Under the pieces are notes generated by a model. It had not been told where the DNA came from. It saw only the letters and a program-made list of their open reading frames with translations, and searched no databases. The translations under genes were made by a program, and so were the position numbers. Of a stretch of DNA of 64,000 nucleotides, positions 20,168-51,395 are shown in pieces; the first letter of the stretch is position 1, and each line of letters starts with the position of its first letter. The stretch is from Stercorarius parasiticus (Eukaryota > Chordata > Aves > Charadriiformes > Stercorariidae): positions 1,488,001 to 1,552,000 of the forward strand of contig VWZL01000728.1 in the NCBI GenBank assembly GCA_013396915.1, given 5' to 3'.

Positions 20168-20243
20168 ATGCAGCTTCTGGACAAGTTCCCTATCGAAGGA
20201 GGCCAGAAAGACCCCAAGCAAAGAATTATCCCTTTTCTGCCAG
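20168..20243 (+). CDS. SH3PXD2A: SH3PXD2A (TKS5) PX-domain exon, about residues 52-77
   Basis: This is an internal coding exon of the scaffold protein TKS5/FISH, a Src substrate that binds phosphoinositides through its PX domain and builds podosomes and invadopodia. The 25 full codons read [12 protein letters not shown], then [13 protein letters not shown], then the first base of a glycine codon. This matches TKS5; the paralogue SH3PXD2B, as I remember it, has MQMLDKFPMEGG here. The acceptor is pyrimidine-rich and ends TTTGCAG at 20167. The donor is CAG followed by GTAATG, weak because position +5 is T. The first ATG is an internal Met codon, not a translation start: the sequence joins in frame (phase 0) to an upstream exon outside the window. 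It ends in phase 1, compatible with 51223. Encoded features are the PX helix after the YRRYSKFFDLQ strand and the proline-containing loop. Assignment to SH3PXD2A is very likely; the exon limits are set by splice consensus and protein match. Confidence 0.95.
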
Positions 20244-23200
20244 GTAATGCTGTGGGTAAAACCCTAAATAAGATAGGTGAGAGCAGTTGGGGACTGCAGT
20301 TCCCCAGCCACCGTCTCTAGTACTTTTTGTGGTCACTCTTACAAATGCCTTTTCCCTGGGAGCTCGTACATGAAGCCTTGTGATACCAGACCTCCGCCGC
20401 CTCCTAAAATAACTGGCATGGTGTTTAGGGCTCCCAGGGGATCTTGCATCAGCTGTTCAGGTTCAGGTTGGCTCGTGCCCTACCATGCAAAGGGATTCAA
20501 TGGCTTTCGGGGGACTGTGCCTGTGGGGTGCAGCCAGACAGCCTGAGCTTGGGCCGCCAACTATGAGGCCACTGGAGAGCAGAGACACCGTTGTCTTAAT
20601 TTCTGGATGCTGTAGCTCTGCAGACAGTGTTACTGTACAATAAGGAATGAATAATTAGAGTTGCCACTGGGATATAAAGGAAAATGAAAGAAGGTTAAAG
20701 CAAACAGGGATTTCTGCAGTGCTGGCCAAAAAGATAAGTCTGGCCTGAACCACTGTCCCTCTGACAGCTTTCAGAGAGGGCCTGGACATGATGAATATCC
20801 TCTCCCCAGGGTAATGGCACACACTTTCACACAGCTTCTTCCAGCAGTGACTGCAGGGATGGCACGGGGGACATGAGCCAGACCGCAGCGTTGCTCTTGG
20901 AAATGTATGCTCAGGCCAGCTTCCTATTGTCTGACTGCACGATTCTGGCTCTTGGTTTAAAGTTTGGCTCGCTGCACTGCCTGCCAGAATAAATGGAGTA
21001 TTTTCAGCCTGTTAAAAGGTCTGTTCTGTCTTTAACTATAAAAAGGAGATCCTAGCTCTTCCCCAAAGGTCTGTAAAGAGAACCTGAGATGGGAGGGCTT
21101 AGTCCTCTCCGGGAGCATGCTGCAGTCCCCAACACCGTTTGCAGGCAGAGCAGCTGCTATATGTGTGGTGAGCACAGCTCCAGGGCTAGCGGGGAAGCTG
21201 GGACTTGGAAACCAGCAGTGCAAATACGTGACACAAGCATTGGAACTGTAGCAGGGCAGCATGGCAGCCTGACAGCCCCAGGATGGGGGTTTGCTCTCTG
21301 CAGTGCTCTGTGCTGCATCCAGACCCTCTGCAGCCAGGGGGAGGTGGTGTTGCCCTCCATTTCCAGTCTGGGATGAGGAGAGGAGTCTAAGTGTGGGCTC
21401 TCTTTCCAGCTGTGCCAACAACAAACTCATAGACAAGTCACTTTGTGAAACCTCTGTATGATGAGGAGGGATACTGCTGGCCTGCCTTTCTTGCTGGAAA
21501 GCATTTTGAGACCCTTGAAACGCACTGTCCAGGAGCGCAAATGACTTTGGGTGAGGTGCTGTAGGATCTCTGTCTGCAGGCAGCAGTTGTTCCTCCTGTA
21601 TTGACCGTCAATGGCCCATTTCTTTTACTTTGTCCTAGAAGAATATTGGCTGAATGCAGGTGACTGATGTGCAGCCTGTGTGCAGTTCTTAAGGATGGAT
21701 GTCCCAATATATGGGTGGGTGATATTTGCGGAGGATGAGATATATTCCATATGCCCATTACAACACTCCCTACCCTTCCCACCCTCCAAGAACATGAGGG
21801 AGATGGTACTGCTGCGTGTCCTTAAGGGGAAGAGTTATATCTGGAGAACATTTGGGTTGACTTAGTGTCCCAGAGAGAGAAGCTGCCAGAATAGAATAGA
21901 TCTCAGCTGTATTTAATTTAAAATTTCTGTGATAGACATTCTACTTTTGATATCGAATCTCTGCCTCTTTCTTGTTGAACTGCTGAAAAGCCCTTGTTGC
22001 TTTACCCAGGAACAAGGTGACTCAGCTAAATGTCAAACAATGTCAAACTCTGTTAAATAAACTAGCTGCCTTAATTAGAATACGCATGGCATTTCTGCAG
22101 CGGAGCCGTGGATTACTGAAATGAATACCTAGCTATAAACTGTCTTAATTAAAAAACAGCAGGGCAGATGTTTGTACTTAAATCCTACTTTTATGAAGAT
22201 GTTATGATCTTGCTTGCTTATTATGGGCCTGATTCAGCCAAGCTGGAGTGATTCTGCATGCTGGGTTCTGAGTGCCCAGGGTTCGCCTGTGCTGCTTGCA
22301 GGCTTGGGCGACTTCCCCCCATCAGGTCTGGTTTAGAAAGTCAATGCATGCCAGCCCGTGATTCCTGCTTGTTAGCAATGCCATGGTGCTCTCCTGAAAT
22401 AAAGGCATGATCTGAGCCTGGGAATTGAGGAACCACCTTTGCAGGTCACTTTGCCATGGCAGGGGATGCATATGGGACTGGTGGGCAGGTCACCCGTAGC
22501 ATGGTGGAGTCGCAGCAGCAGCCACTGCAGCCACTGCTCCGTAGGCAGAAGCAGACGGTGGTGGTACCCAAATCTGCTGCTGCAGCGAAGGGCTGGAAGG
22601 AAAGAATTAAAGGGATGGCCACAGCAAGTTGCACCAAAGGGCCACCCAGTCCTGGTGGTTGCCTATTGTGGGTCCCAAAGGAGGAGCGTAATCTCTCCCT
22701 TCCTACACCCTGGCTGTTTAGTCACAGCAGGGTTTGGGGGATCCAGGACGCTGGATCTGTTTCTGGCCTGGAGAGGGAGAAGGGAAGATGTCTAAACCAA
22801 GAGATGAATGGCCTCTGGAACACCCTCCTGGTCTATTCATGATCATCTGGATGGCAGACAGGGCATGCAGAGGGTCTCACTGGGTGAAAGCAAGCTCCCC
22901 CATCTCCTTCCCACAGGGAAAGGGCTAGTGTGTGCTCCGCTGTCACCTCAGTAGGATCAGGAGCATCAGTTGGCTATGCATCTGGAGCAAGAGGCTGGAC
23001 AGTCCACGTCCTGTTGCTTGGGCACAGTCATGCTATGTCTCAGCTTTTTGCTTCACACACAGATAATAGCCCCCTTTGCACTCACTGCTGCTGGTTTGGG
23101 GTGATTATATGGTTGCAAATTACCGGGCAAGGTGCCTCCCTGTTGGGGCAATCAGGCTTTGGTATTTGACTGTGCTGGAAGCCTTTTACCTGTAAAAACC

Positions 23201-25140
23201 AAGGAAAGCGTAACAGAGTTCAGAGCCTTGCCCTCCAGTGAGAGACCATACTGGGTTCAACAGCAGGAAAGTGCAGTTTTTCTTTCCCCTGGACAACTTT
23301 ATCTTATTTTTATCAATTTCTTTCTTCGTATGTATTTTTCCTCCACTTCCCTCTTACATGGGTAAGGACTATGTTGCTTTCAGTGCCATGAAGAGGAGCA
23401 AGGAAATAATAAGCAGTGTCCGCTAGTCCTGTAAAAGATGTCCTGTGGATTAGTTTGTACTTTTGTTTAACTTTTTGAGAGTCATTCTCCTGCCTTCAAT
23501 TTTTCTGTGAGGTTTGGCTTTTTTTTTACCATACCAAGAGGGCAAAACTTATATTTTTCCTTCCCTTTCCCCATTTTATCTTGTTCCCTTGAGTTTTTCC
23601 TTTCATCTCTCTGATTTCCCTTGTTACTGTTGGAAAAGTTTGCATCAGGGGAGGTGAGGCAAAAAGAAAACCACATAAGAAAACCTGCTTGTGGGGTGGA
23701 CAGAGAGCATTTTTTTTAGTTGGTGGTAAGAAATTTTTGTTTGAGAAGATGGAGGGAGATTGTGGAAGAGTGAGAATAAAATTTGCTGCTAAACCCCCTT
23801 TCTAGACCAAATACAGTTTGTCACTGTAAGAAAACACAGATGAAAAACACTGTTTGGCTGTACTAGTAGGACTGTTGGTTAAGTGCATTTGCAGTGCACT
23901 GATTTCTCCATCACTTCTACCACTCCATATCTGAAGAGCAATCTTTGGAGTGTGGACTCAAAGCTTTGCTACTTTTATATCTGCACCAGCAGACAGAAGA
24001 GGTTATGGATCTGGGCTCCCTTATTTCAGGGATCTTGAGGTAATTAATAAAGGAACTTCAGCTGGAAGGAGAAGAATGGTCTGTTGTGCTTCTGGAGAAC
24101 ACAGTGGCAAATACAAATGACAGAGATGGGGCGATGCAACCCTGGGATTAACAGTTTTGCAGTGGTTGACCCAAGACTCCAGGGCTTGCATTGTTTTTCG
24201 TTTCTCTTGGCGCTAAATGGAAGAGCCATCTGGAGACAAAGCTGAAGTTGGAGGGATGTCAGCTCCTCTTGCTCCACTGTGTCTTCCAAAGCATGGCCTT
24301 GGGGAAAACGCACTGCACAGCATGAAATCATCCCATCACGCTTGCTACTGGGCTGCAGATCCCTGCCATGGAGAGAAGCTTGGGCTTCCCACGGCACGGA
24401 GGGCTGGGCATTTGATGATGGCAGCCCCTTGCACTTTCTGCCCAGGTTCCAGCTTGGTCTCTGCCTGGACTTCAAACCAGTTTTGAGCCCTGCTGAAAAA
24501 ATTGGAGTTTTTGGCATAGACTGTGCTGGAAGGGGAAGATCGTTGTGGAGTGCCTGCTCTGCAGCTTCTGTGCTGCCTGGAGAGGGAGACATCCTGCTCT
24601 AGGAGACTGCTTTATGTGCCTGGTTTTCCTTGCCCTTGGGAAGCTGGGTGCTATCCCAGGGAACCAGGGGGGTCGGTGCAGGCTGCCCTACCAGCTTGGT
24701 CAGGCAGCTGCAGAAGCAGCACCCAGGCCTGGCTTCAGTCCCTGCCTCCAGTGCTTGGGAGTCTCTGCCAGAGACACCTTCTCTCTTCCTTTCTTTCCCA
24801 CTCACATTTTCTTCCTCCCTTGATTAGGCTGAGGAAAGAGGTAACCAAACTTTTCAGAGTGCATGCTGCCAGTGGAACTTGGTGGTTGTGTCCTCGGGCA
24901 CCAGGAGGGAAGCTGACGTGGTGGATGAGATGTCATCAGCCGTTGTCTGGCGACCTGCTTTCCCCCTGAGAAGAGAAACGCCCTGGCACCATCTCAGAAG
25001 GGGCTCTGGGACTTTCTCCTTCCTGGACCCCAAGGCAGTGGGAACACACAGTGTGCCAGCCAAGGCATTTTAAGGACAGGCAGCAAATACAGGGCAGCAG
25101 GAAGATCCCTTCAGGTAGCGCAGGTTTGGCCCTGTTTTTT

Positions 25141-25620
25141 CCTCCCGAGCTGCGGCACGTGGTTCATGCCAGCGACGGCGGGTGGGGAGCGGGGTGAGCT
25201 GCTCCGAGCTGGGAGGGCTTCACCTGCCTAATTAATCTCTGGGCAGGGCTCCCGATTCCCCAGAGAAGCCCCAGCCTCTCCTCCTCCCCTGGCCCGAGGT
25301 TTGCTGGGGGCTGTTCCCCTGGCAAAGCGGGAGCCAGGGGTGCGAGCCCCAGCCGAGCCCAGTCCCATGTGTGAGTCAGGAGGGCGCGGGAGGCCATCCC
25401 AGCACCGCCCAGATACCTGGGGCCGGTGAGGGGTGCTGGCAGGCGGGGAGCACAGCGGGAGCCTCCCCATTTTGCACAATGCAGGAGGACAGGGAATAAC
25501 CTCTCGCCAAACGCCGGCCGGGACCTTCCTCGCCTCCATTTCTGCCGCTCGCGGCCTGCAGTGGGGAAGGAGATCTCCTGCCGATGAACTGCATCCCAGG
25601 TGGATATGTCTGCTTTTCGG
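25141..25620. promoter_or_regulatory. Intronic CpG-island-like patch
   Basis: By hand count it holds about 29 CpG in 480 bp at roughly 60-65% GC. That gives an observed/expected ratio near 0.6, far above the AT-richer, CpG-poor intron around it. It contains GC-box-like GGCGGG and GGGCGCGGG strings. A CpG-rich patch inside a gene with known short isoforms lacking the PX domain could be an internal promoter or an enhancer. No first exon can be called, and the open frames across it (up to 191 residues on the minus strand) look like by-products of GC richness. Confidence 0.5.
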
Positions 25621-26423
25621 TTTCGGTTTAGTGTGTTGGGTTTTTTTTTTCCCCCCTGCCCTTTCCAGTGCTGTCTTTGGGGAAGAGGAAGCTGAGGAGA
25701 AAGGCTTGAGCACGTTTGTGACAGCAGGATTTGGTCCATGGTGATGAGAGCAGCTCTTTTTTCTCTCAGTTGTGCATATTCCAGCTTTGCTCCTTTTGTT
25801 TTGCTCTGGGCTGGAGGAGAAACAGCGTTTTGTTCAGAGATCTTGGGTGGTTATTCTTGTGCTGAAGCAGAGATGACTGGCTCATCCTAACAACCAGCAC
25901 CACGCTGACCTCTGGATCCAGCGGTTCATGTTCCACCTGTGTAAATTGAGACCAGGATCAGCAAAATTAGGATGTGGCCATGTGCAATTTTGTCAAAGGT
26001 GCAGCATTTCAGTGGTGGTCTCTGCATGCCAGATGCTTTCAACGTTTATTCTGCCCACCTCAGGAGACAGAGGGCACGGGGACTGTAAGGAGCATGCTGG
26101 CCGAGGAGGACCCTTAGAAATCTCATTGATATTCTTACTGTAGCCTATTTTTTCCTTTGGAGAGGTGGTTGCTAGCTGGGCATTTAAAAGGAAATGCATT
26201 CCCTGTCCTAATATTTAGCTGGATTTTATGTGCAAAAATATATTTAATTTCAGACTTGTTTTCCATTTTTGATTGTCCTCTCCTGCAGTGCTCTGAGCCA
26301 GGGCAACAAGGTGTTTGTAAGTGATTTTAACTTTTCTTTGGAGTCATTTTGAATTCCTGACCTACATGGAAATGAGCAGTGTTGCAGCAGTTCAGAACCA
26401 GTCAAAAAAGTAACTTAAAGGTT

Positions 26424-26439
26424 AAAAAAAAAAAAAAAA
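26424..26439. repeat. A16 homopolymer
   Basis: A run of sixteen A. No retrocopy or SINE body was recognised directly upstream, so it is more likely a simple repeat than a retroposon tail. Confidence 0.9.
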
Positions 26440-27120
26440 GGAGAGATCAGATAAAATTCTTTTTACCTAGTCATATCTTACATTTTATATTAAAATATGA
26501 ATTAAATTATCCTAATGGCATTCCTTTACTATACAGGGGTAGTCTTGCAGGCATGATAGGTGCACATACGCAGAGAAAGAAGAGTCTCAGACATCTGGTT
26601 TGCTGAGCCTCACCTGTGTAACACAAATAACTGAGATACTCTGTGGTGCCTTCTTGAATATGGGGCAGCAAACTGTCTCGGATGGAGAAAGAGGTGCTCT
26701 GCCCCCCATCGCCGTCCACCCACCTGCAGTAAATCAGCATCACAGTCCTCTGTCCCCACATCAGAGGAGCTGCCAAGGGGTGGGGAGGTGACCCATGGCA
26801 CTGCGGCACGGGATGCTGGGGGCTTGAACAGCTATGGAGAGCTTTTTGGGGACTGCTCCATAATGCAATATAATTTCCTTTTAATATACATATTTTCAGT
26901 TTTCCTGCCTGTTCTTTGAAAGGGGAGAGTGACACCAGGTTTAAAATGAACTTATATTTGAGACAGGGCAGCGTGTTAGCAAGACAGCTAACAGGTCCTT
27001 GGCTTGTTTCCACTCCAGCTTATTTAGGACTTGGGTGATGCCGAGCTTCTGCTGAGCCACTCTTCAGGAGCTCCTATTGTTTGAGAAAGCAGTTTCTATT
27101 GTTTCTTTCTATTTTCTGCC

Positions 27121-27480
27121 TTGCCAGGAGAGGTATTGCGGAAAATCCATCTCCTGTCTCTCACAAGAGGAGAATGGATTTCCTGTCGGCTCCGAGCTTG
27201 AAGGGAAAGCAAGGGCTGCCGGGAGGAAGCGGCCGTTCCTCGGCCGGGCGGCAGGAGGATTGATGATTTCGAGGGGGGTAGGCAGGCGTATTATTTTCTT
27301 CGGGCTCCGTGGAGATATTTTTAGGGCTTAAGTCTTTTCTGTTTGAAAGATGAAATCATCAAGCGTGAGGTCATAGGATGCCCTTAGGCTGCTTCCTATT
27401 GAAGAAGCTGCGGAAAAGGCAGCCACCAGCGACCGCCGGCTTTCAGAGCCCCACCGAGGAAGGGGCTGTGACGAGCCCCA
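27121..27480. promoter_or_regulatory. Second intronic CpG cluster
   Basis: About 12 CpG fall within 135 bp around 27185-27320 and another 6 around 27410-27475, against a CpG-poor background. The sequence includes CCTCGGCCGGGCGGC. It lies about 1.5 kb from the patch at 25141-25620, so the two may form one regulatory region. Only base composition supports this. Confidence 0.4.
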
Positions 27481-29557
27481 TGTAATGGAGTGCAGGGGGC
27501 TTTTGGCTTTGCGTGCTGACCCTGTTTCACAGGCATCATCAGGCCTTCTGGAGGACTTTGGGCATTAATAGGACCTGAGACAAAGGCCTCATTTGATTAC
27601 AAAAGGAAGAAAACATGGGGGGAAAAAAAAAAAGATACTGGCATCTGCCCAAGTACCTGGTCCTCTCCCTTTCAGTCCTTTCTCAGCATACAAAACCAAT
27701 ATCCACCATTTGTCAGATGAAATGAGGGACTGGAATAGGAAGAATCTACAGAATATTTTTCTGGGCCTTTTACCTGCTCCTCTCATGCGGGTTAAGAGCT
27801 GGTATTTTGCTCAACCAGAAACCACCTCTGGGCAGAAATCAGCATATGCAGAACATGACGCGCCTCTCATTAGACCATTTGAGTCTCCTGATGAGAGTTT
27901 TGTAATGATCAAGCCACAGTTTCAAGGGAAAACAAAGAATGGAAAGGGGCATTTGGTTTGGGTTTGCTTGAAGTCAGAGCTAATGGGGTTTATCTGGTTT
28001 TTTTTTTTCAGCGCTGGATGCTAGACTGAAACGGCCAGGGCAGGTTTTCAGTGCAGTATAGCTGCTTGGACTCCTTGGGGAAATATACAGACATTTTTCC
28101 TCAGAAATTAGTTGGATTTTGATTCTTGTTTTTAAAGGCAATAAATAAACACGATTATAGACTTGAAAAGCAGTTTGAACTGCGTTGGGCTCGTCGTTTC
28201 CTCAGGCAGCCGTTCCAGATGAGTGTGCCCTCTACTACTATAATTATTTTTTAAAAATAACTCTGCAAGTCTGTAATCTAAAGTGGGTGGTATGTAGCAA
28301 GTCTGAGAGCATTCTGCATTCAACCCACAGGCTGGGGAGAGGGTGACTTTATATAAGGGTTTGCTTGTCTTCATCTCTGGGTTGAAATCTACTTTTTCCC
28401 ACAATCCATCAACAAATGGCCCATATAATGAAAGTGCTTTTTAACACGGGAATCAAGCTTGCCAGGCACTAGGATGGCTTTGCAGCCGCACGGGCTCTAG
28501 ATATTCCCTCTGGTTGTTGCTTCTCTGCCTGATCTTGTCTTCTGTTCTATTCAGTTTTAAGCTGCCTGAGCGTTAGAGGAGAGCAGAGCCCAGCTGAGAT
28601 TCACACCTAAGTAATAGTCTAGACCTCTGTTTGAGTCTGTTTTCAGCTCGCTTTGCCTTTTTGCTGGGCCAGCTGATTTATTTGTATACTCACATGCTTA
28701 AAATAGGTTGTGATTATTTTTTTTCCTGTAGATTGGAAACAATGAACCTGGGAATTTGATGCTTGATCGCAAGTGATTTCTCCTACCTTTTTTTCACTAT
28801 CTATTAAGCTTTTTGTGTGCTGATGTTCTTAAGTGTGGTGTGTTTGCAGACCTCCCTACTCCACAACGCAGCTATTTTCAGGCTCTCATGAGCACGTTTG
28901 TCCTTACTCATAAGGGGATCTTTATACTCAGGAGCTGGGTGAGAGCATACTGTGGCAGGGATTTGCCAAACTGAATCTATTTCCACTACAATGAAATAAC
29001 CCATGGCAGCGTCTGCCCCCCTGTGATATTTTTTAGAGTTGTAGTCCTGTTTAATGGGAAAGCTGAGGTGGAGAGAGGGAAATAACGTGGGAATTAGAAA
29101 GAAGAAACCAAGGGTAGGTAGAGGAGGAAAAGAAAGTATGTCCTAGAAGTGGGAAATTCAATCCTCTTGAGCTTCTCCGATTCAGAGAGGTGCTAATACA
29201 GGCCCCAGGCTTGTACTCAGGATGGAGGTAATTAATGTTTGCTCTCAGATTTCCTTGGGTCTGAACTTAAACACTTTCACCATGTCATTTTCTATCAGGG
29301 TTTTGCCACCTCTAAATAAAGAGCAGAAAATTACATTCCTTCTGCTTTTACATCCTAAGTATCGGCAAGTTCAGACTTGCAGGTTCCTTCTCATATTCAG
29401 GGCTCTGAACAGCACAGGGCTGACCCGGAATAAGCAAAACATTTGCAATCTGATTTGGCCTTTGATAGGGTTTTATTGGAGGTGTTCGGGCTGGTGGACA
29501 GACTTCTCTTTTTCACTGAGTGCACTGTTAGATGTGATGCCCACCAAATTCTTCCAG

Positions 29558-29581
29558 CTCTTTTTCCAACTCTTTTTCCAT
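29558..29581. repeat. Tandem repeat, 2 x 12 bp
   Basis: CTCTTTTTCCAA is followed by CTCTTTTTCCAT, a pyrimidine-rich duplicate. Confidence 0.85.
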
Positions 29582-32500
29582 CTCTTCCCACCAAACACAG
29601 GATAGGTTGGTACCCTCTCAGGCAAGCAGTAAAACCATCAGACCAGAGTACAGGGTAAAGGCATTTGTGCCTATTCCCACTAGGCAGTGTCGTCACTGCT
29701 GGTCTATTTAAATCATTAGATGCGGAGAGCAGAAGGGAAAATACTCCTATCTTAATCTTGGCTCCTACAAAACAGAGCAAATGCAGAATTGTGTGTTTAG
29801 CAGATTTCCTCTGGGGAAGAGAAGTCTCCTATAGATAATAATCCTTTTAGCAACATCTCCAGTGAACGAGGCTTTGTCCGAAGAACAAAGAAAAAGTCGA
29901 AGCTTGAAATATGCCTGAATTTCCTGAGTCCGCTCACCACTGTGTGCAGGCAGGAAACTGTGTTAGTCTGGTTTGGATGTTTGCTCTGAAGTGGCATAAA
30001 CAGAGTGTCGGGTCTCTCGGGATCCTGATCTGATCCGTGAACCAGGGGACAGGGGTTTCTCTAAGCTGCAGCTATGAGAAGGGCTACCATAGTCATGCAG
30101 CTCTGTGCCCATGTCTCTGGCTGTCCCGTCCTCCCTCTGGCCAAATCCATCCTCTGAAGATCCTGGGTGGATGCAGGAGCCAGCGTCAGAGATGAACGGT
30201 GTAGCCACAGTAGACCCAGCACATGCGGGTGTTAAGCTGCCAGCCAGCAGGGAACTCATTTCCTGCACAATTATGAAAACAGCTGATCTGTGATATTTTA
30301 AGAAGGTGGGGAAAATACAGGGCAGGGGAAGGAAGGCCCCGGCTACGTAAATATTTACTTTTGCACGATGTCCTAGCCACCCCCTTCTCCCAGGGGCTGG
30401 GAGAAGAAGGGGTTGCTTGCTGCTGGCTCTGGTATGTGGTGACAGGGGACAGGAGAGCCACCAGTGGGCTGCCCACATCTGGAAGGAGCACACTCTCTGC
30501 CCAGCAAAAGCTGCTGTGCTGGAGTGTGATACTGCGCTGCTGCATCCCACAGCCAGGGATGTGCTGCTGGACCACCTGCCTGGGCCTCTCTTCCTCCTCC
30601 TTGGTCTTGCTCTAACAAAGCCAAGCTAGTGAGGTACCTCTGCTAGTAAGGTATATTCCTGCTGCTTCCCAGAGAACAGCCTTGGGAAGGGGGTTGGGGA
30701 AATGAAGGCTTGAATCTCTCAGGGTAGTGCTGCTGCAGGCAGATGCGGTGTCCGGGATCTGGATACTGCAGCATCTCATGTGATGCCGCCACCACCACAT
30801 CACAGGTCCATCGCCAGCCAGGTCGGGAGCAGACGTGAGCCACATTGTGTGCAGAGGAGGCACTTGCTAGATCTGATTGAAAAAGACCCTTGGACACAGG
30901 TCAAAAAAGTCCCTCCGAGATGGGGAAAAGAATTTTTTCGATCATGGCATTGTTCAACCTGATATAATCCCAGTTTTCAATTTCTTTCCCTCACCCTAGA
31001 CAAAAATGTTATTTTTTCCAGCCCTGTCAACACGAGGGTGAATTGACGCTCTCTGGTCTATAAATGCTGCTCAGTTGTCCTTTCATTAGCCCTTCTGGGC
31101 CGGGGTGGCTGGTCCATCGCCATTCAGATGCTGTGTACATTTGACACAGTATCTGACCGCTGGGGCAGCTCCGAAGTCCCTCCTGTGTGTACTCAGCGGG
31201 TGGAGGGAAGGCTGTGACGTGCTTTGCCTGAGGTCCAGTTAGTCTGTGTTTGTAGCCAGGATTGCACCATTTAAGCCATATTTCTGCAGTATGGCAGTCT
31301 GCGATGGTTGTGTCAACACGGGGTGACCTGTGTGTAAGGAGATTCAGTGAATCCCAGTAACACTGACATTGATCCACTGGTGGGTCTCAGCATATTCTGC
31401 TCTCCTGGTGGTGTCTATGAAACCAGAAGAGTTGGAATAGGTGGGATTCAGAGTGGTTGATGTGGTAACAGAGGTACCTCCAGCCCGTTCCCCTCCTCCC
31501 CTTTCATCAAGGAAAGTTCACTCCCCAGGGCATGCACCATCACTCAGTGAATAAACACAAGGGATTTGTGTCGTGGGTTAATTCTGCTGCTAGAAATCAA
31601 ACCCCGTCCGTGGTCAGATGACATCTTTTTTCTTGGAAAGGGACCAAGGTTAAGAAGACAAGGAAGGCAGGTTAGTTAAAATATGTCGAAGTCTCTTGGG
31701 TATCAGTAAAGACTATAAATAAAAGCCTTTTAACTTGGAAAAGAACTTTAGAGTGATATGATCAGGTTCAGTTTAGTCCAAATATTGCTTTATGCCATTA
31801 AGCTGTTATCAAGTTTTGGTTCAATTGCAATAGTTTTATGGCTTAAGTGCAGTGGGAACGGTTGCAGCCTTTATGCAAGTAAAGCATTTCCCCCAAAATG
31901 TTTGCAGTGAAGACTGCTGTATTGTGCAGGAACCTGGGAGTAAAACTGCCTGGAAACAAATAGCTAGGGAGGTGACCTTCTGTAGCTCTTTTCTTTCTCC
32001 ATTCCAGAGTAACTACACAATCTAAGGATTTATATTGTGAACAATGAGGGGATTTAAATGAGGTTTAGTTTTACATTCTCGTTAATGAATCCTCAAATTC
32101 AGTAATAAAAGCTGAACATTTTTACTTATTTCCTCTTAAGCTGCAAGCATGTCTGATTCAGCAGCGTCTTGAGATGATTTGTCAGGATGAGAAAATAAGT
32201 CACATCCCTCTTCCTCTTGGGATTAATAGGGAACTAGAATAATCTTGTACCCATAATATTATTTCAGTTGGGTTTGCATAATAGCCTGGAAATGGTTATA
32301 CTCGATGCAATGCTTTGTAATGATGATGTTTCATCCTTTGAAGTTAGGTTAATTCATGTCACAGTGTCAGATCTGCGCAAATAATAAAACACTTTCTTTT
32401 TTCCTCACAGTTTTTCTTAACTAGCCCTCATTTTCTGATCCAAGTTTTACTATGGTCTATCAGAAGTGAGTGGATTTTAATGCTGTTTCTGCAAATATCC

Positions 32501-40139: not shown

Positions 40140-41125
40140 TTTTACCAGCAAGGATTCTTGAAGGATCTGTCTAAGATCTGTGCTGTTCAACCTAGGATCT
40201 GCAATAGAGGGTGTTAGTGAAATAACTAACTTAGCTGATCATGAAATTACTTAGGATATTCAAATTTGGAGCTGACTGCAAAAAGTTGGAGGAGGAGCTA
40301 GTGGTATTGATGGTAAAAAGGCAGTTCAGTGTTGGTAAGTACAAAGCAGTTCTATGGGGGGGAAAAAAGGATCATTGCAATGATTGCAATTGAGGAAGGA
40401 GATTTCGGTAGTTGTGAGGATGTTTCCACAAAAACTACAGCTCAACAGTCAGCAGCAGTCAGAAAGCCAAAGGTGGTGTTAGAAAGAATTAAGCAAAGAA
40501 TGGGAAACAAAACCCAGAGCTTCAGCTGTGGAAATCCACGATTTCCCCACATCATGAATACCATGGGCAGGTCTGGTCATTGCCTCTCAAAAAGGGTATA
40601 TAATAAACTAAGGTGCTGAGAAGGATGACAGAGGTGATTACAGAGGTGAATTGGCTTCTGTGTGAGGGGAATAAATAGACTAAAAGTCTTCAGTCTGGAA
40701 CTGAGGTGATGGGTGGGATAGAGTAGAAGTTTGTGAAATCAAAAAGACTTTGAGAGAGTGAGGAGGACATGATTATTTTTATTTCTCAGAATGCAAAAAA
40801 CAAGTGCAGCCTGTGAAATTTGGAAAGCAAATCTAAAGTGAACAAAAGCAAGTATGTAGTCACATGCTGTGTGATTAAATTATGAAATTATTTTCTAGAG
40901 GACTCTATAGGGACCACAATATCTGTGGGTTCGAAAATGTATTAGAGTTGTCAAAAATTATTTTCTAATTCAGAAAAAAATCTAACCACTGATGTGCAGG
41001 AATGGGGAGTGGATATCAGGAGAAGGATCCCATTACACATGTCCTGTTCTTGAATTTCTTGCCTAAGTTTTACTGACCAGTCTTGCAGACAGGGAGCTGG
41101 ACTACAGAGATCTTTGACTCAATCA
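40140..41125 (+). mobile_element. Ancient CR1 (L3-like) LINE fragment, about 1 kb
   Basis: This is a heavily decayed CR1 of the old amniote type. Recognisable blocks in order: CTGTGCTGTTCAACCTA near 40180; AAAGTCTTCAGTCTGGAA near 40685; a GTTTGTGAAATCAAAAAGACTTTGAGAGAGTGA block; GCAAATCTAAAGTGAACAAAAGC; CACATGCTGTGTGATTAAATTATG; then GGGAGTGGATATCAGGAGAAGGATCCC and CATGTCCTGTTCTTGAATTTC near 41005-41060. It ends in the turtle/bird CR1-type AGACAGGGAGCTGGACTACA, then GATCTTTGACTCAATC. No reading frame survives. Family assignment is from remembered consensus, so subfamily is uncertain and the 5' boundary approximate. Confidence 0.7.
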
Positions 41126-44001
41126 AATGCAACACTCTTAAATCACTGCAACAAAGTAGACTAAGTCTTCTGTCCCTTTTTAGTGTGTTATAACTACCAG
41201 GGAAGCTTGAATTCTGGGATTGTAGCAGCTAAACGTGTAGATGGTGGTCCTCCATCTAGAAGTGGAGGAGATGGTGTCTGTCCATTCTTGACCTTCTACT
41301 TGGAGACCACAAGTCTGCAGGCTGGACCACCTCAGAGGGGTTATCTGAGGTACCCAATAGTGGGACTTTATACCTCTGGCCAGCCCTGTGTAGCACTGCA
41401 CACCAGGACACAAAGGCAAACAGCATTTGGGGAGCTGCTATTCCTGTGTGGTGGCACAGGGAGAGAAAGACCAGTTTGTTTGGTGGTGTGGATTTTGTTA
41501 GCAGTCAGTCCCGTTTGGCTGCTTAGTGTCTCCGTGGCTTCAGATGCAATTAATCAGGGCCCAAAAGGGTAATTATCAGCTCACATTCCTAATTCAGATT
41601 TCTGTGCCTAGTCATGTTACTGTTTTTTCTTTAATTTAGCAATAAAGTTTGGGTTATTTTCATGTTTTTATGCTGCTGGACCAGTGACCTTATTAAAAAT
41701 AAAAAATAACAAAACATTAGTTTCCAGTCTACATTTTTTTCTTCTCCCTGTGAAATGAAAAGGCCGTATTAACCGTGAAAGGGGTCCTAGGGTCCTGCTG
41801 TCACCTTGGCTAAAGGCACTTTTCCTTTCAAGGGGTGGGTAATTGCTTAGAACATTAATCCCTGAAAGAGGCTTTTATTCTGCAGTGGGCGAAGCTGTTG
41901 ACATCTGACAGTGCTGTTTCCTCCTTTGACTGGACATAGGCACTTTGCTGAACCCAGGAGAAGGTGGCCCTGGAAAGCTGGGGATGCTTGGCACCCTCCA
42001 CCCTGCGCACTTAACACTGTGTTTACTTGCACGTGGAGGAACTGAGAGGAATTTTTCAGGGAGATTGTCCTCAGCTGTCTTCTGGCATCAGCAGGCACTG
42101 CTGGTGCCAAGTTGCACGTGAGTGTAGTTTGGATTAGGTGGCCTGAGCTGGAAATGCCTGAAGTGCTCACACATGGAGGAGTCGGGTGTGAAGGAGGCTG
42201 GTTATCTGATAAGCCGTTATAAAATCATTTCCCTGTTCCTGTTCATCAGCTGAGCCGTGGTAACTGCTGGTGTGAGTGCTTTTATTTGTGCAGCTGAGGT
42301 GGAGCAATCTGAGGGACCTTTGCTGTCCCTGGGAGGCTGAGTGACTGGACACTGGCTCGTGTTGGTGCAGACCACATGCACCCATATGGATCACCATGTC
42401 CACTGCCTACCAAAGGAGTGGGTTAGCTGTGCATCCATCAGCTGGGAAGGGAAAATAAGGCTGGCTTCACGGTCAAGAATTAAAGAGGAGGTGCTGCTGG
42501 GTGGCCTGGCCCTAGACCTGACCCAAAGGCTGTTTTGTCAGGCGTTGTGGCCAGATCGCACATCCCAGCTGGCTTATTGCACTGCAGGCTCAGAGGAGAC
42601 AGGGGAAGGAGTGCAGGTCCAGCTTCGGAGTCAGCGCAGGGAGGTGCAAACATGTCTGCACCAGTCAGACCCCCAGCGTGTGCTGGAAATAAAAGCGCCC
42701 ATCTCTCTTCTCCTGTAACACGCAGAAATCAGCCATCCCTGCCTTAAAACACACGCTCACAAGCCTTTGAAGTCAACATTAGCTTTATTGGGGATCAGAG
42801 CAGGCAGAGAGGAAATCCCTACCAGAGGTTTTCTTAATGACACAAAAAGGTAAGACATACTAAAAAGGCATGTCTGGAACCAGAGAATGATGCCGGTGGT
42901 TTGAGATGGTGTCTTGATCTGCAGATGAGCTTTCTGCCTCGGAGGCTGGTCAGCTTTGGTCTGGTTGTCATTCAACAGCTTATGTGCCTGTCATCGTCAT
43001 CTACTGAAAATTCAGCTTAAAACCAGGCGCAGGTTTTGCTTAGAGGACTGCAGGACAGCACTTCCCTTTGGAAAGAGAAAACAGTGCTCTGTTTTGCAAA
43101 GCACAGGGGATTTGGTTTCTGAATGCTGCTCTCTGAAACCCTAGCTGGTGAAGTTCCAGCCTCTGACGAGCACAGACACCTAGTTATGTTTGCTGCCGCG
43201 TTGTTTGTTTGTTTAATTTCTGTATTAATTGGTGCCTTCCAAATACCACAACTGCTCTGAGAAGCACTGTCCCTGCCAATCTGAGTGCTGAATTTCACCT
43301 CCTGTAATGTGGGACATGTGTACCTGGCAGCTGACTTAATCGAGGTCTTCCACGGGAGAGAGTTTTGCCTCATTTGTGGCAGAAATCGAGGATTTGTTTT
43401 TGATCAGAATAAATGTTTGTACAGAAAGATTTTCTGGCCCCGGATGCCAAGGTAGACGTGTTTCCATTCTGCATGTGATCAGCAAAGGGATCTAGGGACT
43501 GGCTTTATTGTTGTCATTAGTGTGTGCTCATTTTGTGACTTTGTGAAGCCACCTTTGCATCCCTACTCCTCAATTTCTACCGGCAATGTTCCTGTAAGAG
43601 TACATGCCTTAGCACTGCGTTATTGCATGACCTACCTCCTAGTAATAATAACTTTGATCTACGTGGTGAGAGTGCAAATATTATTTTATTCACAGCTCCG
43701 GTTCTCAACCAGCTTAAGGGTGGAGTCTCCCAAGCAGTGTTATTGCCAGTCATGCCAAAGGATGTGGCTAGGACCTTACTGAGCTTTTCCAGTGTAGTTT
43801 GGCAAGGGTGTGGTGCAAATCCATCTCCATCCAGTGACCTTGCTGCAAGGTCTTCGACCTCAGTGGATGCAGCTCAAAGGTTCCCTGTCGGCAAGGCTGG
43901 TGCCGGCCTAGTGTGTGTGAGGTAGTGTCTCGGGCTTAGTGTCACACCAGCACGTACATTAATGACAAGTCTCATAAGACCTTATAAGACAGTGCAAATG
44001 G

Positions 44002-44029
44002 TTTAGTATTTGTTATTTAGTATTTGTTA
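44002..44029. repeat. Tandem repeat, 2 x 14 bp
   Basis: TTTAGTATTTGTTA occurs twice in direct succession. Just before it, ATAAGAC appears twice 11 bp apart. Confidence 0.85.
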
Positions 44030-44359
44030 AGGCTGCTGTTTTAAAAGATTGAGGTGGAATGATATGGTCATTCCTGAGGGTCCATATCACCAAGTGTCAG
44101 TAGAAAGACTCCTGTTGATTTCAACAGACCCTAGTGAGCAAGGAGGTACTTGATGTGTTTTTGGAAAGAGTAGAGGAAAAGTTCAGTTAATGTAGCTGCA
44201 AAGGCATGGTCTTGCCCTTCAGGAAGAGCATGTTTCATGGTTAAGGTGGCACAAAGACATATGAGAGGCTCTTGCCTTTTCCTGCTCTGGGGTCAGGAGC
44301 TGGAGTAGTTCTGATGATACAAGCATGTTCAGCAGCAAATATATAATACAAACAGGGGC

Positions 44360-44500
44360 TGCTGGTTCCCAAACCAACATACAGTGATCCACATCATTCC
44401 CACACTGGCCAGGGAGTGAAACTCTTGAACATAGCTCTGCAGACTGTCTGTGGACCAGTAATGATTTGGAGATCACAGGTTAGGAGCCACTAACTACCTA
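44360..44500 (-). mobile_element. Possible ancient DNA-transposon remnant
   Basis: The segment has GGTTCCCAAACC at one side and CTGTGGACCAGTAATGATTT, then GAGATCACAGGTTAGGAGCC, at the other. This resembles the 'only one best side' ends of old mammal/reptile hAT-type repeats, read here in reverse. The match is by phrase resemblance only and no transposase is visible. Confidence 0.25.
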
Positions 44501-46940
44501 GGTCGCGCTGGTGTCAGCTGATACAAGAGGAAAACAAAGTGTTTCCGCAATGACATGTAGGGTTTGATGTTTCTCTGATCAGTTAGGTATAGACTCTAGA
44601 GAGTTTGATCATTATTTAAGCCCTAATGTTTCCGCATGTTTGATGACTTGGTCCTGGAAATTTGGAAATGAATCTTTTTGGAGGTTGTTCAAAAAAGCAC
44701 AGGGTGCAGTGTATGTGTAAGTGTGCAGATTCTTATCTTAGGGGAGAAGTATGCATAGGCAAGGGTGATGCTTTGGATCTGCATAGACTTTCCTGTTTTT
44801 CTGTGCCTTTTGCTCCCAGCGTAGCAAAGACTGTATGCAAAGTGGGGGACACTCCTGCATCCTCTGTGCGAGGAAGCCGTGCTGTTTCCTAAGGCAGTGT
44901 TTCTCGGATGTTTTGAAAACGTGACCTTCTTTTGGCTCCTCGTCTCTGTGGGACTTGGAATTATCATCAGGTCAGTTCCTCTGGGTGAGGGTGTGCCATT
45001 TGCTGGTGTTGCTGTCTGCAGGTCTTAATACCATTCTCTCTCTCCCCTCGGACAAACTGACTGCTTTCTGCAATTAAAAGCAGTTGTCTGTTTGCTGGCT
45101 AATGTAGAGTTTGCAACCAGTAATTAGAAATGAGTTCACTTTCCACCTTGGGGAAGCTGAGCTGTGTAGTTCAAGGAGGCACCGGTTTCCCTGCAGAAGC
45201 TGAAGACTTTACTCACTGAATCAACACTCCCAACATTTTGCAATCACTCACAGACTGGGAAGTTCAGTTTTAAGGGATGTGGGGCCTTGTGCTCACACTG
45301 AGATCCTCTTGTGTGGGGTAGGTGCTTTACTGTGCTGTACTCCGGAGGTAAAGTTGGTTTAAGCAAGGTGGTGGATCTCTTCTGGTTTGCTGGTGCATAC
45401 AGACCAATGCACAGAGAGCCACCCACAGTAAGAAAATTGAAATGGTAATTTTGTAGCCCTTTCCAGATCAAACACCGCGTAATTTGCCTGCACTGTGATT
45501 CCTGCCTTGCTTTGGAGGGGTGGGAGATTTGCAGCTGGGGCAGCTGAAGAGATTACAGGAGCAGTAGGTTGGTTGGGTGGTAGCAGCACTACACAGAACC
45601 GCATGAACTAGCTCTTGGCTTATGCAGAACACAAACAGTAACCCAGCTGTTAGCTTGAGATTTGCACCCCGTGGCCCCCACCTGTCACTCCTGAATTTCA
45701 GCATCAGTGCTCCTGGCTTTTCTCCTTCTTCCAGCTGTGCTTGGTGCTTGGATTCCCAAAGTCTGTACTAGCAAGGCTGTTCTAGAGGTGATGCTGTTGT
45801 CCCTGGAGGATAGTAGCCACCCCTACAGACAGTGGAAGGCAGCCAGGTTCAGAGGTAGGAGCTCTTTTCTGGTGGGGAATCCAGCTTCACCTCTTGTCTG
45901 TCTTTGGTTTCCCCTTGTAATCATTCACATTAGGGCATATTCTGCTTATCAATTCTAATGGAAGAAGAAAGATTTCTTTTCCTGGTGATATTCTTTTATA
46001 GTCAAGCCATGTTATTTCCCATGCTTTATGGCTTCTTGGTGATTTTCTTTAACATTGCAGCTTATGCACATTAAAAACAGGATCCAAGTGCAGAAGGACA
46101 CCCTCCCCACCAGCCCCCACATATTGTTATTGCTTGTGTTGTCTTTCCTGACTGCCCCATCTGTCTCCATCACCTCTTGTCACCTTCCATAGTAATTCCT
46201 GCTGATTAGCAAAGGCCTTTATCAACTGAGGCTCTTTGGCAGCCAAGATCAGCCAACAGTTCTGAATCTGTCATGAGTTTCTACTTATTAAAAAAAGTCC
46301 TTCCCCCTCCCACCAGTGGAAACAGTATGAATCATTTCCCTCCCCTTTCTTTGTCAGGAGCAAATGCCATCAATGTTAGGACACTGGCACTGGCTTTCTG
46401 ACTCCAGGAAATCGTGGATGAAACAATCCATGGAAACTGGGATCCCCATGTAAAAGCAAGACATTATTTTATAAGGAACACACCTCATTTTTGCCTGCTG
46501 TCAGATTGCCATCTGGTTGACAATCACACGTACTTCCATGAGAAACATAAAATTGTTCTATCCAATAGTGCTATGCTGTTGAGTTATCTATTTTGCATTG
46601 CAAGGTGGCAGTGTGTCTTTAAATGCTCCATTTGGGAATTACATTGTATGACAGGTGCCTGAGAGTTTCATGCAATATCCTGGGTTGGATGTCACAGCTT
46701 AAATGGGTTGAGGGGAATTTGTGTCATATCTGATTGCACATCTGTGCTTCTTCAGTGTATAAAAAGAATAATAACAGCTATATGTAAGGAGTAGAAGCCT
46801 TCATAAAAATACTTGAGCAACAAAATGGGTTTAGTTTCACTGGAGGAAGCTGCTTAGCCCAAAAGGAGAAGCTGTAACTGCGTGAGGGCTAAATTCTTTT
46901 CTGTTGTCTGCTGTGACTGTTGGGGCTGTAGGGCATATGT

Positions 46941-46949
46941 CCCCCCCCC
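46941..46949. repeat. C9 homopolymer
   Basis: Nine C in a row in an otherwise mixed sequence, with no other feature. Confidence 0.9.
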
Positions 46950-48427
46950 TTGAAGAGGAAAGACTGGACTCTCCCGCTAGGCATCCCCGTAGAGACTTGT
47001 AGTGCTTCTCAGCCTGGTGATGCCTGGTGCTGTGCTGCCTCCATGCTCCACAGTGTCACCGAGCCCACCAGGAGCAGGGTTTCTTTTCTGCACGAACCAC
47101 ATCCTTCACCATTACAAAGCATTAGGCTATGGACCTTTCTGGTGTGTTCAGCACAGACTTGTAGTCTAATGGGAGGGCCAAGGAGTCTAATGTTGGGATG
47201 TTTTTAAGCCTTTATTACTCCAAGTGTGAGGTTACGCAGAAATGAAATGATATTCAGAGGATGCCTTTAAGGCTTGCAGAATCAGCAGCTGGCATAGACG
47301 GTCTTCTGCATAGCTTTATTCGTCCCACTTTGAGCACCCGCTGTGTATATAGGAGGAAACTGGGGCCTTGTGGGAAAAGGGGTGTGTGGTCGCAGAATTA
47401 AAGGCTACATCTATATATATAGACAGAGAGATGAAGGGATGACTTGAGATATCCCCTACAATGCTAAACCTGATACTTTGCCTCTTATCCACATTAATTT
47501 CCTAGGAATAATATTTTCTTTAAAGAAAAAAAGGTAAAAATAAATATTGTTATCCTGCATTAGCAGCAGGGCTGGAGCGCTGTGTCTTCCCCACATCTCT
47601 CTTTCCCAGTGCTACAGTCCTCAGAGTCCTTCCTAACATGTGACAGACCTCCCTTGGCCCAGTTTGAGCCTGGCGCATGGGTGAATGAAATACTTGCATG
47701 AGGCAGTGCTGTCCTGTGTAGCCTATAGCTTCCCATCTGAGACCGAGACAGACTTCCCCTTCACTTCCTAGCTGGGCTGCAGCATGATTAAAAAGCCTCT
47801 CATACTTCTGTAAACCAGGGCTGTAGTGCCTGAGTAGGCTTGAAAGAGCTGCAGTAAAATTCAGGAGAGAGGAAGCAGCACTGTATGTACTCACATAGAA
47901 GTAGATCCCTTCCTTAGAGACATGGGAGCTACCCAGAGGAAAAGCCAAGTGGCACATAAACCACTACTCCACCCTTGCAAGGAAATTGCCCGGGCTGTTC
48001 TGCATTTACCGGCCACCCCAGGACTTCCCTGCTTCCTGTTAGTGCTGTATTAAATGCTCCTTTCCACTGCCGTCCCGAGGGCTCCTCGCTGGCTCTTACA
48101 TGCTCTTACTGCTTGGCTCTCTGCCTGCTCTTTATTTCTTTATGGTGATAACAGGATGATCCTAACTACCTCGCTAGTCAAAGCTCTCCATTAAAGGGCT
48201 CTGTGTCCAGTGCACCCACTTGTGGAGTGTAAAGGAGTGTACAGTGTGGGTGTCTTTTGTTACCTTCCTTTTCCAGTCCCACGGGACCTCCCCTGGTAGA
48301 AATGGGGGAACTGGAGGAAGCACTAGTAACTTATATGGGATTTGCAGTGGGTCCTGCTGGTCGATGGGGACGGATTCGGATGAGCTTTTGTTGTCAGTCC
48401 CAGAGAAGGGGAGAAGCTTGGGAAGGT

Positions 48428-48459
48428 GGGCATTTGGGAAGTTGGGCATTTGGGAAGTT
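48428..48459. repeat. Tandem repeat, 2 x 16 bp
   Basis: GGGCATTTGGGAAGTT occurs twice exactly, a recent small duplication. Confidence 0.92.
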
Positions 48460-51212
48460 TTCCCTCCTTAGAGGTGCTTCGGAACCCCTGGCAATGAGGC
48501 TTCTTTGCCTGAGGACCCCAGGATTTGTGAGGAGGTCCCTCCTTGCTGCCCACCAGAACTGGATGTGGTTGCAGAGTGTCCTTGTTTCAATTCTTGTTTT
48601 TTTCCTTGTTGACTGCTACTCCATGGTGCTCTAAACTACTCAGCCTTCTCCAGATCTCAGTTTTGAATGCCATGCTGGACTGAGCAGCTACAGATCTTCC
48701 CCACAGCCCTCACTGAGCCTTTTCCAGCTTCCCATAGCAGAGGAAAAAATCTTCCTTTTTCTGAAGGGATAAAAATGGAAGCACCTTCTGGGCTTTGCTT
48801 CATCCTAACGCCACAGTCATCCTGATATTTTCCATCTCCTTTTAAGGACTGAATTAAGACTCATCATATCCTGGGGTCTTTTTTGTACTCTGTGTTTAAT
48901 ATAACATTCTTTATTATATTTATCTTGTTTCTTATGTTTGAGTCTTTCATTTATTATGTTACTTTGAAGACTGGGCCTCCTTGTCTTTTTAGGAAAGCTG
49001 AATTGCATTTACAGGAGATCTTTAATGTGTTTAAGTCTTTAGTTCCTTTATGTTTTCATATGATCACCGGTTCGACTTTCGACTAGTGGCTTGAACTGAA
49101 AACAGGAAAGCCAGAAAGTGAGAATGTTTCCAAAATGTTGCTTTCTCTATGCAGTATATTTATGAAAGTTGCAAAGAAATACCAAACTCTCCCACACCAG
49201 CATTTCTGGAGCACTGAGAAAGGAACTAGTCTTTTCTCTACACCTACCCCCACACCCCTTTCACCCAAAAAAAGCGGCTTACTGCAGTTGTGCAGTACAA
49301 ATACAGTGTGATCCTGGAGGCTATTAGAAATAATAAGAAATGGTTTGGAAGTGCGGGTAGTTCTCCCCATCTACCGGGCAGAGAAGCAGGAAAGCAGCAA
49401 TGTTTCGATGTGTCCAAAGTGGGTCAGTGCAGGGTGATGGGAGTCACACTTTCCTTCACGAGCAGCTTTTGACTAAATCGCTCAAGCTCAGATGAACATC
49501 TCAGACACCTATTGAAGATTTCCCGTGCTCTGACCACGTGGCATCACATCCTAAAGGGATGGCTGAGCACCAGCTTTGGAATGAGATAACCACAGGGAAC
49601 CCAGAGAGAGAAATTTATGGCACTAGGAAATGGCTTTACCTCACAGGACAAACTCTTTTGCTGTCAGAATTGGGGATGGAGATAAACCACTTTCTCCTGC
49701 CTGAAACAAAAGGCTTTAACACCTTCCAGATTAGCAGCTGTGGAGAAAAAGGCAACCAAAAGGGGCAGAGTCTGGGGGAGGTTAGAGCCTCTGCTACTGG
49801 TCTGTTAAAGGTTGCTGTTTCGTTAACCTCTCAGCTTGTGTAATCATGACAAAATCAAAGCCACATATTCAGATTTTGAATCTGATTTCATTTCCTAGTC
49901 CATTTTCTTATCCCATGATCTATGGATGAGTATCTCATTTGCCTGTTGGCAGAAGAAGTTTGGAGCAGGGGGTGGTATATATGTCAGTGGTTTTTTTACA
50001 CAGACATTTCGTGGACTAAATAATGCTGGCAGATAGTGTTTTCTTCCACCACAAAGAGAACATATAATTTATTCTTGTCTCATTACATTAAAAGAAATAC
50101 AGCACAAAAGAAAAGGGGAAGAAAACCACCAAAAAAGGATATGAAGATGTAATCCCTTCAAGCCAGAAAAATACCATCACATCCTTGTGTGTGGGGAAAC
50201 TCAGTTCCTAGATTATTTTGATAAACTTTGTTACAATCAGTTTCACACAAAACCCAGCTGTTTATTTAATCTTAACTGGCTTGCAGAAATGTCATCCAAC
50301 AAGGACACTGAGGTTATTATTTTTTTTACTTTCAAAAAGAGAGAGATTATTTATTTTTCTTCTATTATTTGGTTTCCCTCTGTAGATTTATAAGGGCTCT
50401 GTCACCAACAGCCTTGTGTTTGCTCATGAGCTGGCTGTGTGGTTTGCCTGCCTGCAAGGGCAGGAGCCTCTGCAGTGGGAGGCGGTTGAGGGGGCAAGCA
50501 TGGGGTGTAGATGGAGCCCGCATACCACCCCAGCGATGCTCCCAGTGCTGCCAGCACAGACGTGCCAAAGCAGCCCTGAAGTAGAAGAGAGTCGTAGCAT
50601 AGTGTTGGTCCATTCCAGGATAACGCCATCACTAAAAGGGAACCAAAACTTCTTGCGTTATCTGCAGGATGAAATCAGAAAAACTCCCTCTGCCCCGTGA
50701 GTCACTGTGGTCCCCTTTTGGTGGCTCATGCAAGCAGGGCATTGGTGGCAATCGCTGGGGTTTCACAGAGCTGCTATGCCTGTGGTAGCTGTTGGCCATG
50801 TTCTGCATCTCCCGTGCAGACTTAAGACCAGCAGCACCCAGCTGCGGGAGGTGCCATGCACACTCCCCTAAGAGCTCTTGCTCTTCCTCCATTGCCTTCC
50901 CGCAGCGTGTTTCTGTGCAGTTTGCTCCGAGGGCAGGAGCAGATCTGCTGCTCACACCTCCTCTGTGTGCCGTCCTGTCTGTCTTGTAGCAATGGTGGGC
51001 CACAGTCACACAACGCTGCTGCTGTGAGAAGCTCCCCAGTGCTGGGACTCCTCCACTGGGTCCGTAATGGGGTTGCAATGGTCAGCCACCTGCACTGCTG
51101 ACAGCCGTGGTTGGAGCCGGGGATGAAACCCTGTCTGCCGGCCTTTCTGCTTGGTGCTGTTGTGCTATCCCACATGGCAGGCGATGCCCCTAACCCTCCC
51201 CTTTCATCTGTT

Positions 51213-51228
51213 CCCTCCTCAGGTAAGA
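51213..51228 (+). promoter_or_regulatory. SH3PXD2A: Acceptor fused to a donor motif at exon start (recursive-splice-like)
   Basis: The exon acceptor has a branch-point-like CCTAAC (51189-51194), a pyrimidine tract without AG, and CTCAG ending at 51222. The exon itself begins GTAAGA. The preceding exon ends CCAG, so the spliced junction reads CCAG/GTAAGA, a near-consensus 5' splice site. Its CAG before the GT is a better match to U1 than the exon's own donor (AGG/GTAAGA). The motif is seen directly; its use is inference. Confidence 0.6.
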
Positions 51229-51299
51229 TCCTGTTCCGGAGGAGCCATGTCCGAGACGTAGCGGTGAAGAGGCTGAAGCCCATCGACGAGTACTGCAGG
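51223..51299 (+). CDS. SH3PXD2A: SH3PXD2A (TKS5) PX-domain exon, about residues 77-102
   Basis: This internal coding exon of 77 nt completes the split glycine codon (G from 20243 plus GT) and then encodes [15 protein letters not shown] and [10 protein letters not shown]. In the TKS5 PX domain, Arg93 (human numbering, here the AGG at 51270-51272) is one of the two arginines shown to be needed for phosphoinositide binding; it is kept. Val replaces the human Ile in SHIRDV. The paralogue SH3PXD2B has KRLIPIDEYCK, so Lys-Pro and the final Arg favour SH3PXD2A. The donor is AGG followed by GTAAGA, and the exon ends in phase 0, matching 61436. Skipping it would shift the frame. A young CR1 begins about 97 bp after the donor. 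The minus-strand frame of 267 residues across this exon and the CR1 is a shadow. Confidence 0.96.
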
Positions 51300-51395
51300 G
51301 TAAGAGCTGTGTGTGAGGGGCTCAGGGCCACCACCAACACCGGGCTTTCCCTGACGGATACTACTAGGAGCTTCATCTGTGTTGACACCATCATA

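What the first reader, a model, noticed from the sequence alone, without database searches (positions are those of the whole stretch)
20240..51300. Splicing two SH3PXD2A exons rebuilds a strong 5' splice site at their junction
The exon at 51223 starts GTAAGA right after a pyrimidine tract and CAG. The exon before it ends CCAG. The joined RNA reads CCAG/GTAAGA, a better match to U1 than the exon's own donor (AGG/GTAAGA) and than the previous exon's donor (CAG/GTAATG). This is the recursive-splicing arrangement known from long vertebrate introns. A second step from the junction to 61436 would drop the 77-nt exon, including Arg93 of the PX domain. The frame would then meet TGA at the 13th codon in the exon at 61436, so the product would be a target for nonsense-mediated decay. 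The motif and frame are read directly; use is inferred.
Basis: partly seen in the sequence, partly recalled or inferred. Interest (0 to 1): 0.75.

Follow-up and report, generated by a model that had tools for sequence, protein, structure and literature searches.

The report
Rebuilt splice donor at an exon junction
When two exons of the bird gene SH3PXD2A are joined, the seam happens to spell a strong splice signal; this is a known, fairly common arrangement, and the few related sequences that could be read lack it, so it is most likely a tolerated accident rather than a switch.

Summary
Exon 20168-20243 ends CCAG, exon 51223-51299 starts GTAAGA, and the joined RNA reads CAG|GTAAGA. That beats both neighbouring donors on a recalled consensus matrix and on U1 pairing. 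Skipping to 61436 shifts the frame and stops at 61471-61473. The gene is SH3PXD2A.

The interpretation needs correcting. This is a coding exon of the kind called annotated putative RS-exons. Blazquez et al. 2018 count 3.6% of human exons as such, 93.8% of them constitutive, with hundreds held in by the exon junction complex. It is not the cryptic ratchet exon of long introns.

Unnamed database ORFs read on the opposite strand of the orthologous exon reveal the synonymous Gly base. In 3 of 7 it is fully readable, and all 3 start GG or GC, not GT; the other 4 are T or C. The paralogue SH3PXD2B has GA. Given Gly-Lys, GT-AAG is expected about 16% of the time.

Most likely it is a lineage-local, exon-junction-complex-shielded bystander: a new member of a known kind. 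Whether it leaks into skipping in bird cells could not be tested.

The parts
20168..20243 (+). SH3PXD2A coding exon A (exon 3 by mouse numbering), 76 nt, [25 protein letters not shown] + first base of Gly
   Evidence: 100% protein identity of the A-B-C translation to predicted bird SH3PXD2A records P0001 and P0002; the mouse exon-3 qPCR primer quoted in PMC4178035 corresponds to KDPKQR, inside it (compared by eye)
20244..20249 (+). donor of exon A, GTAATG (T at +5, weak)
   Evidence: matrix 7.34
20214..20225 (+). expected exon junction complex deposition area, about 24 nt upstream of the A|B seam
   Evidence: position rule recalled; sequence printed; binding not tested
20244..51222 (+). 30,979-nt intron between exons A and B; no other pyrimidine-tract YAG|GTRAG site found in it
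51183..51222 (+). 3' splice site region of exon B: cctaac branch-like motif (by eye) and long pyrimidine tract, ...cctcctcag
51223..51299 (+). SH3PXD2A coding exon B (exon 4), 77 nt, starts GTAAGA; with exon A's CAG it rebuilds a 5' splice site
51300..51305 (+). exon B's own donor AGG|GTAAGA
   Evidence: matrix 8.50
61436..61527 (+). SH3PXD2A coding exon C (exon 5), 92 nt; acceptor that either donor would use
61471..61473 (+). TGA met in frame if exon B is lost

Best explanation
Exon B is most likely an ordinary constitutive coding exon of the PX domain of SH3PXD2A. In this bird its first bases, together with the last bases of exon A, spell CAG|GTAAGA. The 31-kb intron is removed first because its acceptor is made about 10 kb before the next one (inferred). 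The seam then briefly carries a donor stronger than the exon's own (shown, by score). The exon junction complex left on exon A by that splicing step, with RNPS1/PNN, hides the seam (inferred from human work). The exon's own donor, 77 nt downstream, is therefore used and the exon stays in. Any leak drops exon B, stops translation in exon C and is removed by nonsense-mediated decay (frame shown, decay inferred). The GT at the exon start is one synonymous choice of the Gly codon that varies among relatives; it is tolerated, not maintained.
For: Seam and donor strengths, frame and stop. Human precedent: 3.6% of exons are putative RS-exons, 93.8% of those constitutive by annotation; core exon junction complex factors repress skipping of hundreds; a GC-to-GT change at the start of an RPS2 exon was enough to make it one. 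The proportion is similar in the deuterostomes examined there. Relatives: of 7 opposite-strand ORFs, P0125 starts GG, P0126 and P0127 start GC, and P0121-P0124 are T or C; all 7 match SH3PXD2A better than SH3PXD2B. Paralogue SH3PXD2B in the same genome starts GAAAG. Given Gly-Lys the expected chance of GT-AAG is 0.158. Of 13 accepted junctions of SH3PXD2A and SH3PXD2B (15 pairs tried), this is the only one scoring above 4.
Against: No RNA data for any bird were available, so constitutive inclusion is not shown. The seam outscores exon B's own donor, the condition under which some human RS-exons become sensitive or leaky. The relatives are unnamed ORF records, only 3 of them resolved; that they are birds or near kin rests on matching intron flanks. 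Four of seven could still carry T. The mammalian state is unknown. The matrix is recalled and MaxEnt was not run.
Confidence: 0.8

Rival explanations
1. The rebuilt donor is leaky in normal cells: a fraction of transcripts re-splices from the seam to 61436, losing exon B and being degraded, which lowers the PX-containing (Tks5 alpha/long) form.
For: Seam score 10.99 against 8.50 for the exon's own donor. In human minigenes (aCADM2, KPNA1) a stronger RS-5ss caused skipping even with the exon junction complex present. The 10-kb following intron gives time for the seam to exist before the next acceptor is made (coordinates, inference).
Against: Most human putative RS-exons are constitutive by annotation. 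No skip product among the 127 proteins fetched (120 of the 138 hits plus 7), but these come mostly from genomic DNA, so this is weak. GT absent in the 3 fully readable of 7 relatives.
Confidence: 0.13
2. A conserved, regulated recursive-splicing switch in birds controls how much PX-domain Tks5 is made.
For: Arg93, a PX phosphoinositide-binding residue (recalled), lies in exon B. Exon loss would hit only the PX-containing form, since in mouse the PX-lacking forms start downstream of exon 5.
Against: The GT needed for it is absent in the 3 fully readable of 7 relatives and in the paralogue. A full-text search for SH3PXD2A with 'recursive' listed 5 papers, none about splicing by title and abstract start.
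Confidence: 0.03
3. A zero-length ratchet or cryptic RS-exon of the long-intron type shortens the 31-kb intron.
For: Pyrimidine tract, CAG|GTAAG and a donor 77 nt downstream are the same parts.
Against: The exon is coding and present in predicted bird SH3PXD2A protein records, so removing it is not neutral; no other ratchet-like site was found in the intron.
Confidence: 0.04

Closest known systems
Annotated (constitutive) RS-exons repressed by the exon junction complex (Blazquez et al. 2018, PMC6224609; abstract, sections 8, 10, 15 and 30 and found passages read)
   Same: Coding exon whose start plus the previous exon's end rebuilds a strong 5' splice site at the seam; own donor weaker.
   Different: SH3PXD2A is not named in that paper's main text; no splicing or knock-down data here; supplementary gene lists could not be read.
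Cryptic RS-exons of long vertebrate introns (Sibley et al. 2015, recalled and as cited in PMC6224609)
   Same: Pyrimidine tract, YAG|GTRAG, a donor shortly downstream, long preceding intron.
   Different: Those exons are normally spliced out and absent from most mRNA; this one is protein-coding.
Drosophila intronic ratchet points and the Ubx cassette exon (PMC10156609 found passages; PMC8605326 start of abstract in a listing only)
   Same: Donor rebuilt at an exon start after the first splice.
   Different: The Ubx cassette exon is dropped through it in minigene experiments; no evidence of use here.

Membership tests
Annotated putative RS-exon | Exon-exon seam scores as a valid 5' splice site (MaxEnt above the value met by 90% of real donors) | tested here: met
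   Scored with a recalled frequency matrix and U1 duplex energy, not MaxEnt: higher than both neighbouring real donors
Annotated putative RS-exon | The exon is part of the annotated mRNA | tested here: met
   Predicted bird SH3PXD2A protein records contain the exon's residues joined to both neighbours (P0001-P0003); predictions, not RNA
EJC-repressed RS-exon | Skipping rises when eIF4A3, RBM8A or MAGOH is depleted | not testable with these tools
   needs cells
EJC-repressed RS-exon | Upstream intron removed first | not testable with these tools
   needs nascent or paired-end RNA reads; intron lengths 30,979 and 10,136 nt only make it plausible
Cryptic long-intron RS-exon | Exon normally excluded from the mature mRNA | tested here: not met
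   exon is coding and in predicted protein records
Functionally maintained recursive site | GT start conserved beyond what the protein requires | tested here: not met
   of 7 relatives 3 readable, 0 of 3 with GT, 4 unresolved T/C; paralogue GA. Small, unnamed sample

The most novel reading that the evidence does not exclude
Among close relatives with the same exon and flanks, a single synonymous base toggles exon 4 of SH3PXD2A between a non-donor (GG), a weak GC donor and a strong GT donor at the seam. In lineages with GT, exon-junction-complex-sensitive re-splicing measurably lowers PX-domain Tks5, making birds a natural allelic series for the cost of a rebuilt donor.
Probability: 0.1. Interest if true: 0.45.

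Novelty: new member of a known kind. Interest (0 to 1): 0.2.

Why it matters
By itself it is one more of the several percent of vertebrate exons whose seam rebuilds a donor that the exon junction complex may have to hide. Its use is as a natural test: relatives differ at one silent base, so the same exon could be compared with and without the rebuilt donor.

Tried and rejected
Looked for orthologous DNA in viral contigs and genome contigs: 11 and 77 pattern matches, none a relative. Looked for mammalian opposite-strand ORFs with a tandem query: 2 proteins at E 10 or better of 7 candidates, both already known, so the mammalian state stays unknown; my uncertain recollection of the human exon was not used as evidence. 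Looked for a zero-length ratchet point elsewhere in the 31-kb intron: none found. Looked for skip products among fetched proteins: 0 of 127 (120 listed of 138 hits, plus 7), weak since most are genomic.

Looked for published recursive splicing or skipping of SH3PXD2A: 'SH3PXD2A'+'recursive' 5 papers, none on splicing by title and abstract start; 'Exon Junction Complexes Suppress'+'SH3PXD2A' 0 papers; exon-junction-complex terms, 258 papers with at least 3 of 6 terms, of which the 12 listed hold no SH3PXD2A; 'SH3PXD2A'+'exon skipping' 4 papers, listing only. A listing on recursive splicing in birds or chicken was looked at, not read. The main texts of PMC6224609, PMC10156609 and PMC6110456 do not name SH3PXD2A. 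Supplementary lists were not readable. Considered and rejected: wrong exon boundaries (the A-B-C join equals predicted bird protein records); wrong gene (paralogue found separately on another contig).

In one search, 15 exon pairs were tried. One gave no solution (SH3PXD2B 70013 to 87060). One was dropped because exons between were not located (SH3PXD2A 61527 to 137896). 13 were counted.
Full report
WHAT IS THERE. The window lies in an unnamed 1.14-Gb genome (G000, contig C353). Three coding exons were read and checked by joining them: A 20168-20243, B 51223-51299, C 61436-61527. The join gives [81 protein letters not shown]. This is part of a PX domain (Pfam PF00787, E 3e-7), 100% identical over the query to predicted bird records named SPD2A or SH3 and PX domain-containing protein 2A-like (P0001, P0002). 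The paralogue SH3PXD2B sits on another contig (C2091). By the mouse numbering in PMC4178035 (found passages read) these are exons 3, 4 and 5.

THE SEAM. Exon A ends CAG; exon B starts GTAAGA. The seam CAG|GTAAGA scores 10.99 on a donor matrix recalled from memory, against 7.34 for exon A's donor (CAG|GTAATG), 8.50 for exon B's own donor (AGG|GTAAGA) and 6.78 for exon C's donor. Energies with the U1 5' end are -11.0, -8.1, -8.9 and -6.1 kcal/mol. Loss of exon B puts exon C in a frame that stops at 61471-61473, 54 nt before the end of exon C. With more junctions downstream, decay is the expected fate (established rule, not tested here).

IS IT MORE THAN CHANCE? The encoded Gly-Lys at this phase forces the exon to start G-N-A-A-R. 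In the exon stretches located for SH3PXD2A and SH3PXD2B, 16 of 67 Gly codons are GGT and 59 of 89 Lys codons are AAG, so GT-AAG is expected with a probability of about 0.16. Of 13 accepted exon seams in the two genes, 1 scores as a donor (this one); the next best is 3.58 (15 pairs tried, 2 dropped as told in Tried and rejected). In human, 3.6% of exons (6,837) pass as putative RS-exons, and the share is similar across the deuterostomes examined (PMC6224609, sections read). So the motif is real and unremarkable in frequency.

IS IT KEPT? No vertebrate genome collection was open to alignment. The protein collection, however, holds ORFs called on the opposite strand of this exon in unnamed organisms (source label 'lgn'). 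Reading such an ORF reveals the silent Gly base. In the codon-register frame, P0125 (20 member sequences) reads ...PEQDLP then C, i.e. CCC, so its exon starts GGAAG; P0127 ends ...PEQDLA, i.e. GCC, so GCAAG. In a second frame P0126 reads ...TGSCLRR, i.e. TGC, so GCAAG. In a third frame P0121-P0124 read ...RNRILP, where Leu means T or C (decoding by hand). All seven hits are accounted for: 3 resolvable, 0 of 3 with GT, 4 unresolved. All 7 match the opposite-strand frames of SH3PXD2A better than those of SH3PXD2B (bit scores 60.5-125 against 30.0-41.2). In most of them the flanking intron also matches the window, which suggests birds or near kin; no species name is available. The paralogue's exon starts GAAAG. 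With GC the seam score falls to 4.36, with GA or GG to 1.04. A second search aimed at mammals added nothing.

WHAT IT IS AND HOW IT WORKS. The class is the annotated RS-exon. In human cells such seams are hidden by the exon junction complex and RNPS1/PNN and the exon is kept. Depleting eIF4A3 lets PRPF8 load at the seam, and sensitive exons are dropped. Sensitive exons tend to have strong 3' sites, weaker own donors and early removal of the upstream intron; a GC-to-GT change at an RPS2 exon start was enough to create one. Sensitive and insensitive exons had similar seam scores, so score alone does not predict use. The bird exon has a good pyrimidine tract, an own donor weaker than the seam, and a next acceptor 10 kb away, so it is a fair candidate for sensitivity, but this is inference.

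WHAT THE PROPOSED CHECKS WOULD SHOW. Junction reads 20243-61436 cannot tell re-splicing from ordinary skipping, and a drop in nascent RNA at 51223 is expected for any exon there. A lariat beginning at 51223 is the specific sign (reasoning).

VERDICT. Observation confirmed; interpretation partly supported; a new member of a known kind, most likely a shielded accident that drifts. No paper linking SH3PXD2A to recursive splicing was found in the searches (12 of 258 listed; listings); supplementary tables were not readable, so the human exon's status in published lists is unknown.

Noticed in passing
window 20244-20249: The donor of exon A is GTAATG, without G at +5. Of 50 fetched ORFs reading through the homologous donor (2A and 2B, many vertebrates), 10 show Gly-Asn-Ala-Val-Gly like the window, i.e. 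GTAAY; one (P0076) shows Lys in the same setting; of the other 39, 13 show Lys and 9 Asn. A weak +5 seems widespread in the window's group.
   Followed up: partly
window 51397-51942: Open frame of 182 codons on the + strand about 100 nt after exon B, in the intron, beginning [60 protein letters not shown]; by recall it resembles the end of a LINE-type reverse transcriptase.
   Followed up: no
L007 (G000:C646:160442-163555): A further PX exon, resembling the neutrophil cytosol factor 1 (p47phox) kind by recall, starts CCCCGAAG after ctag, so that family member also lacks the GT start.
   Followed up: no
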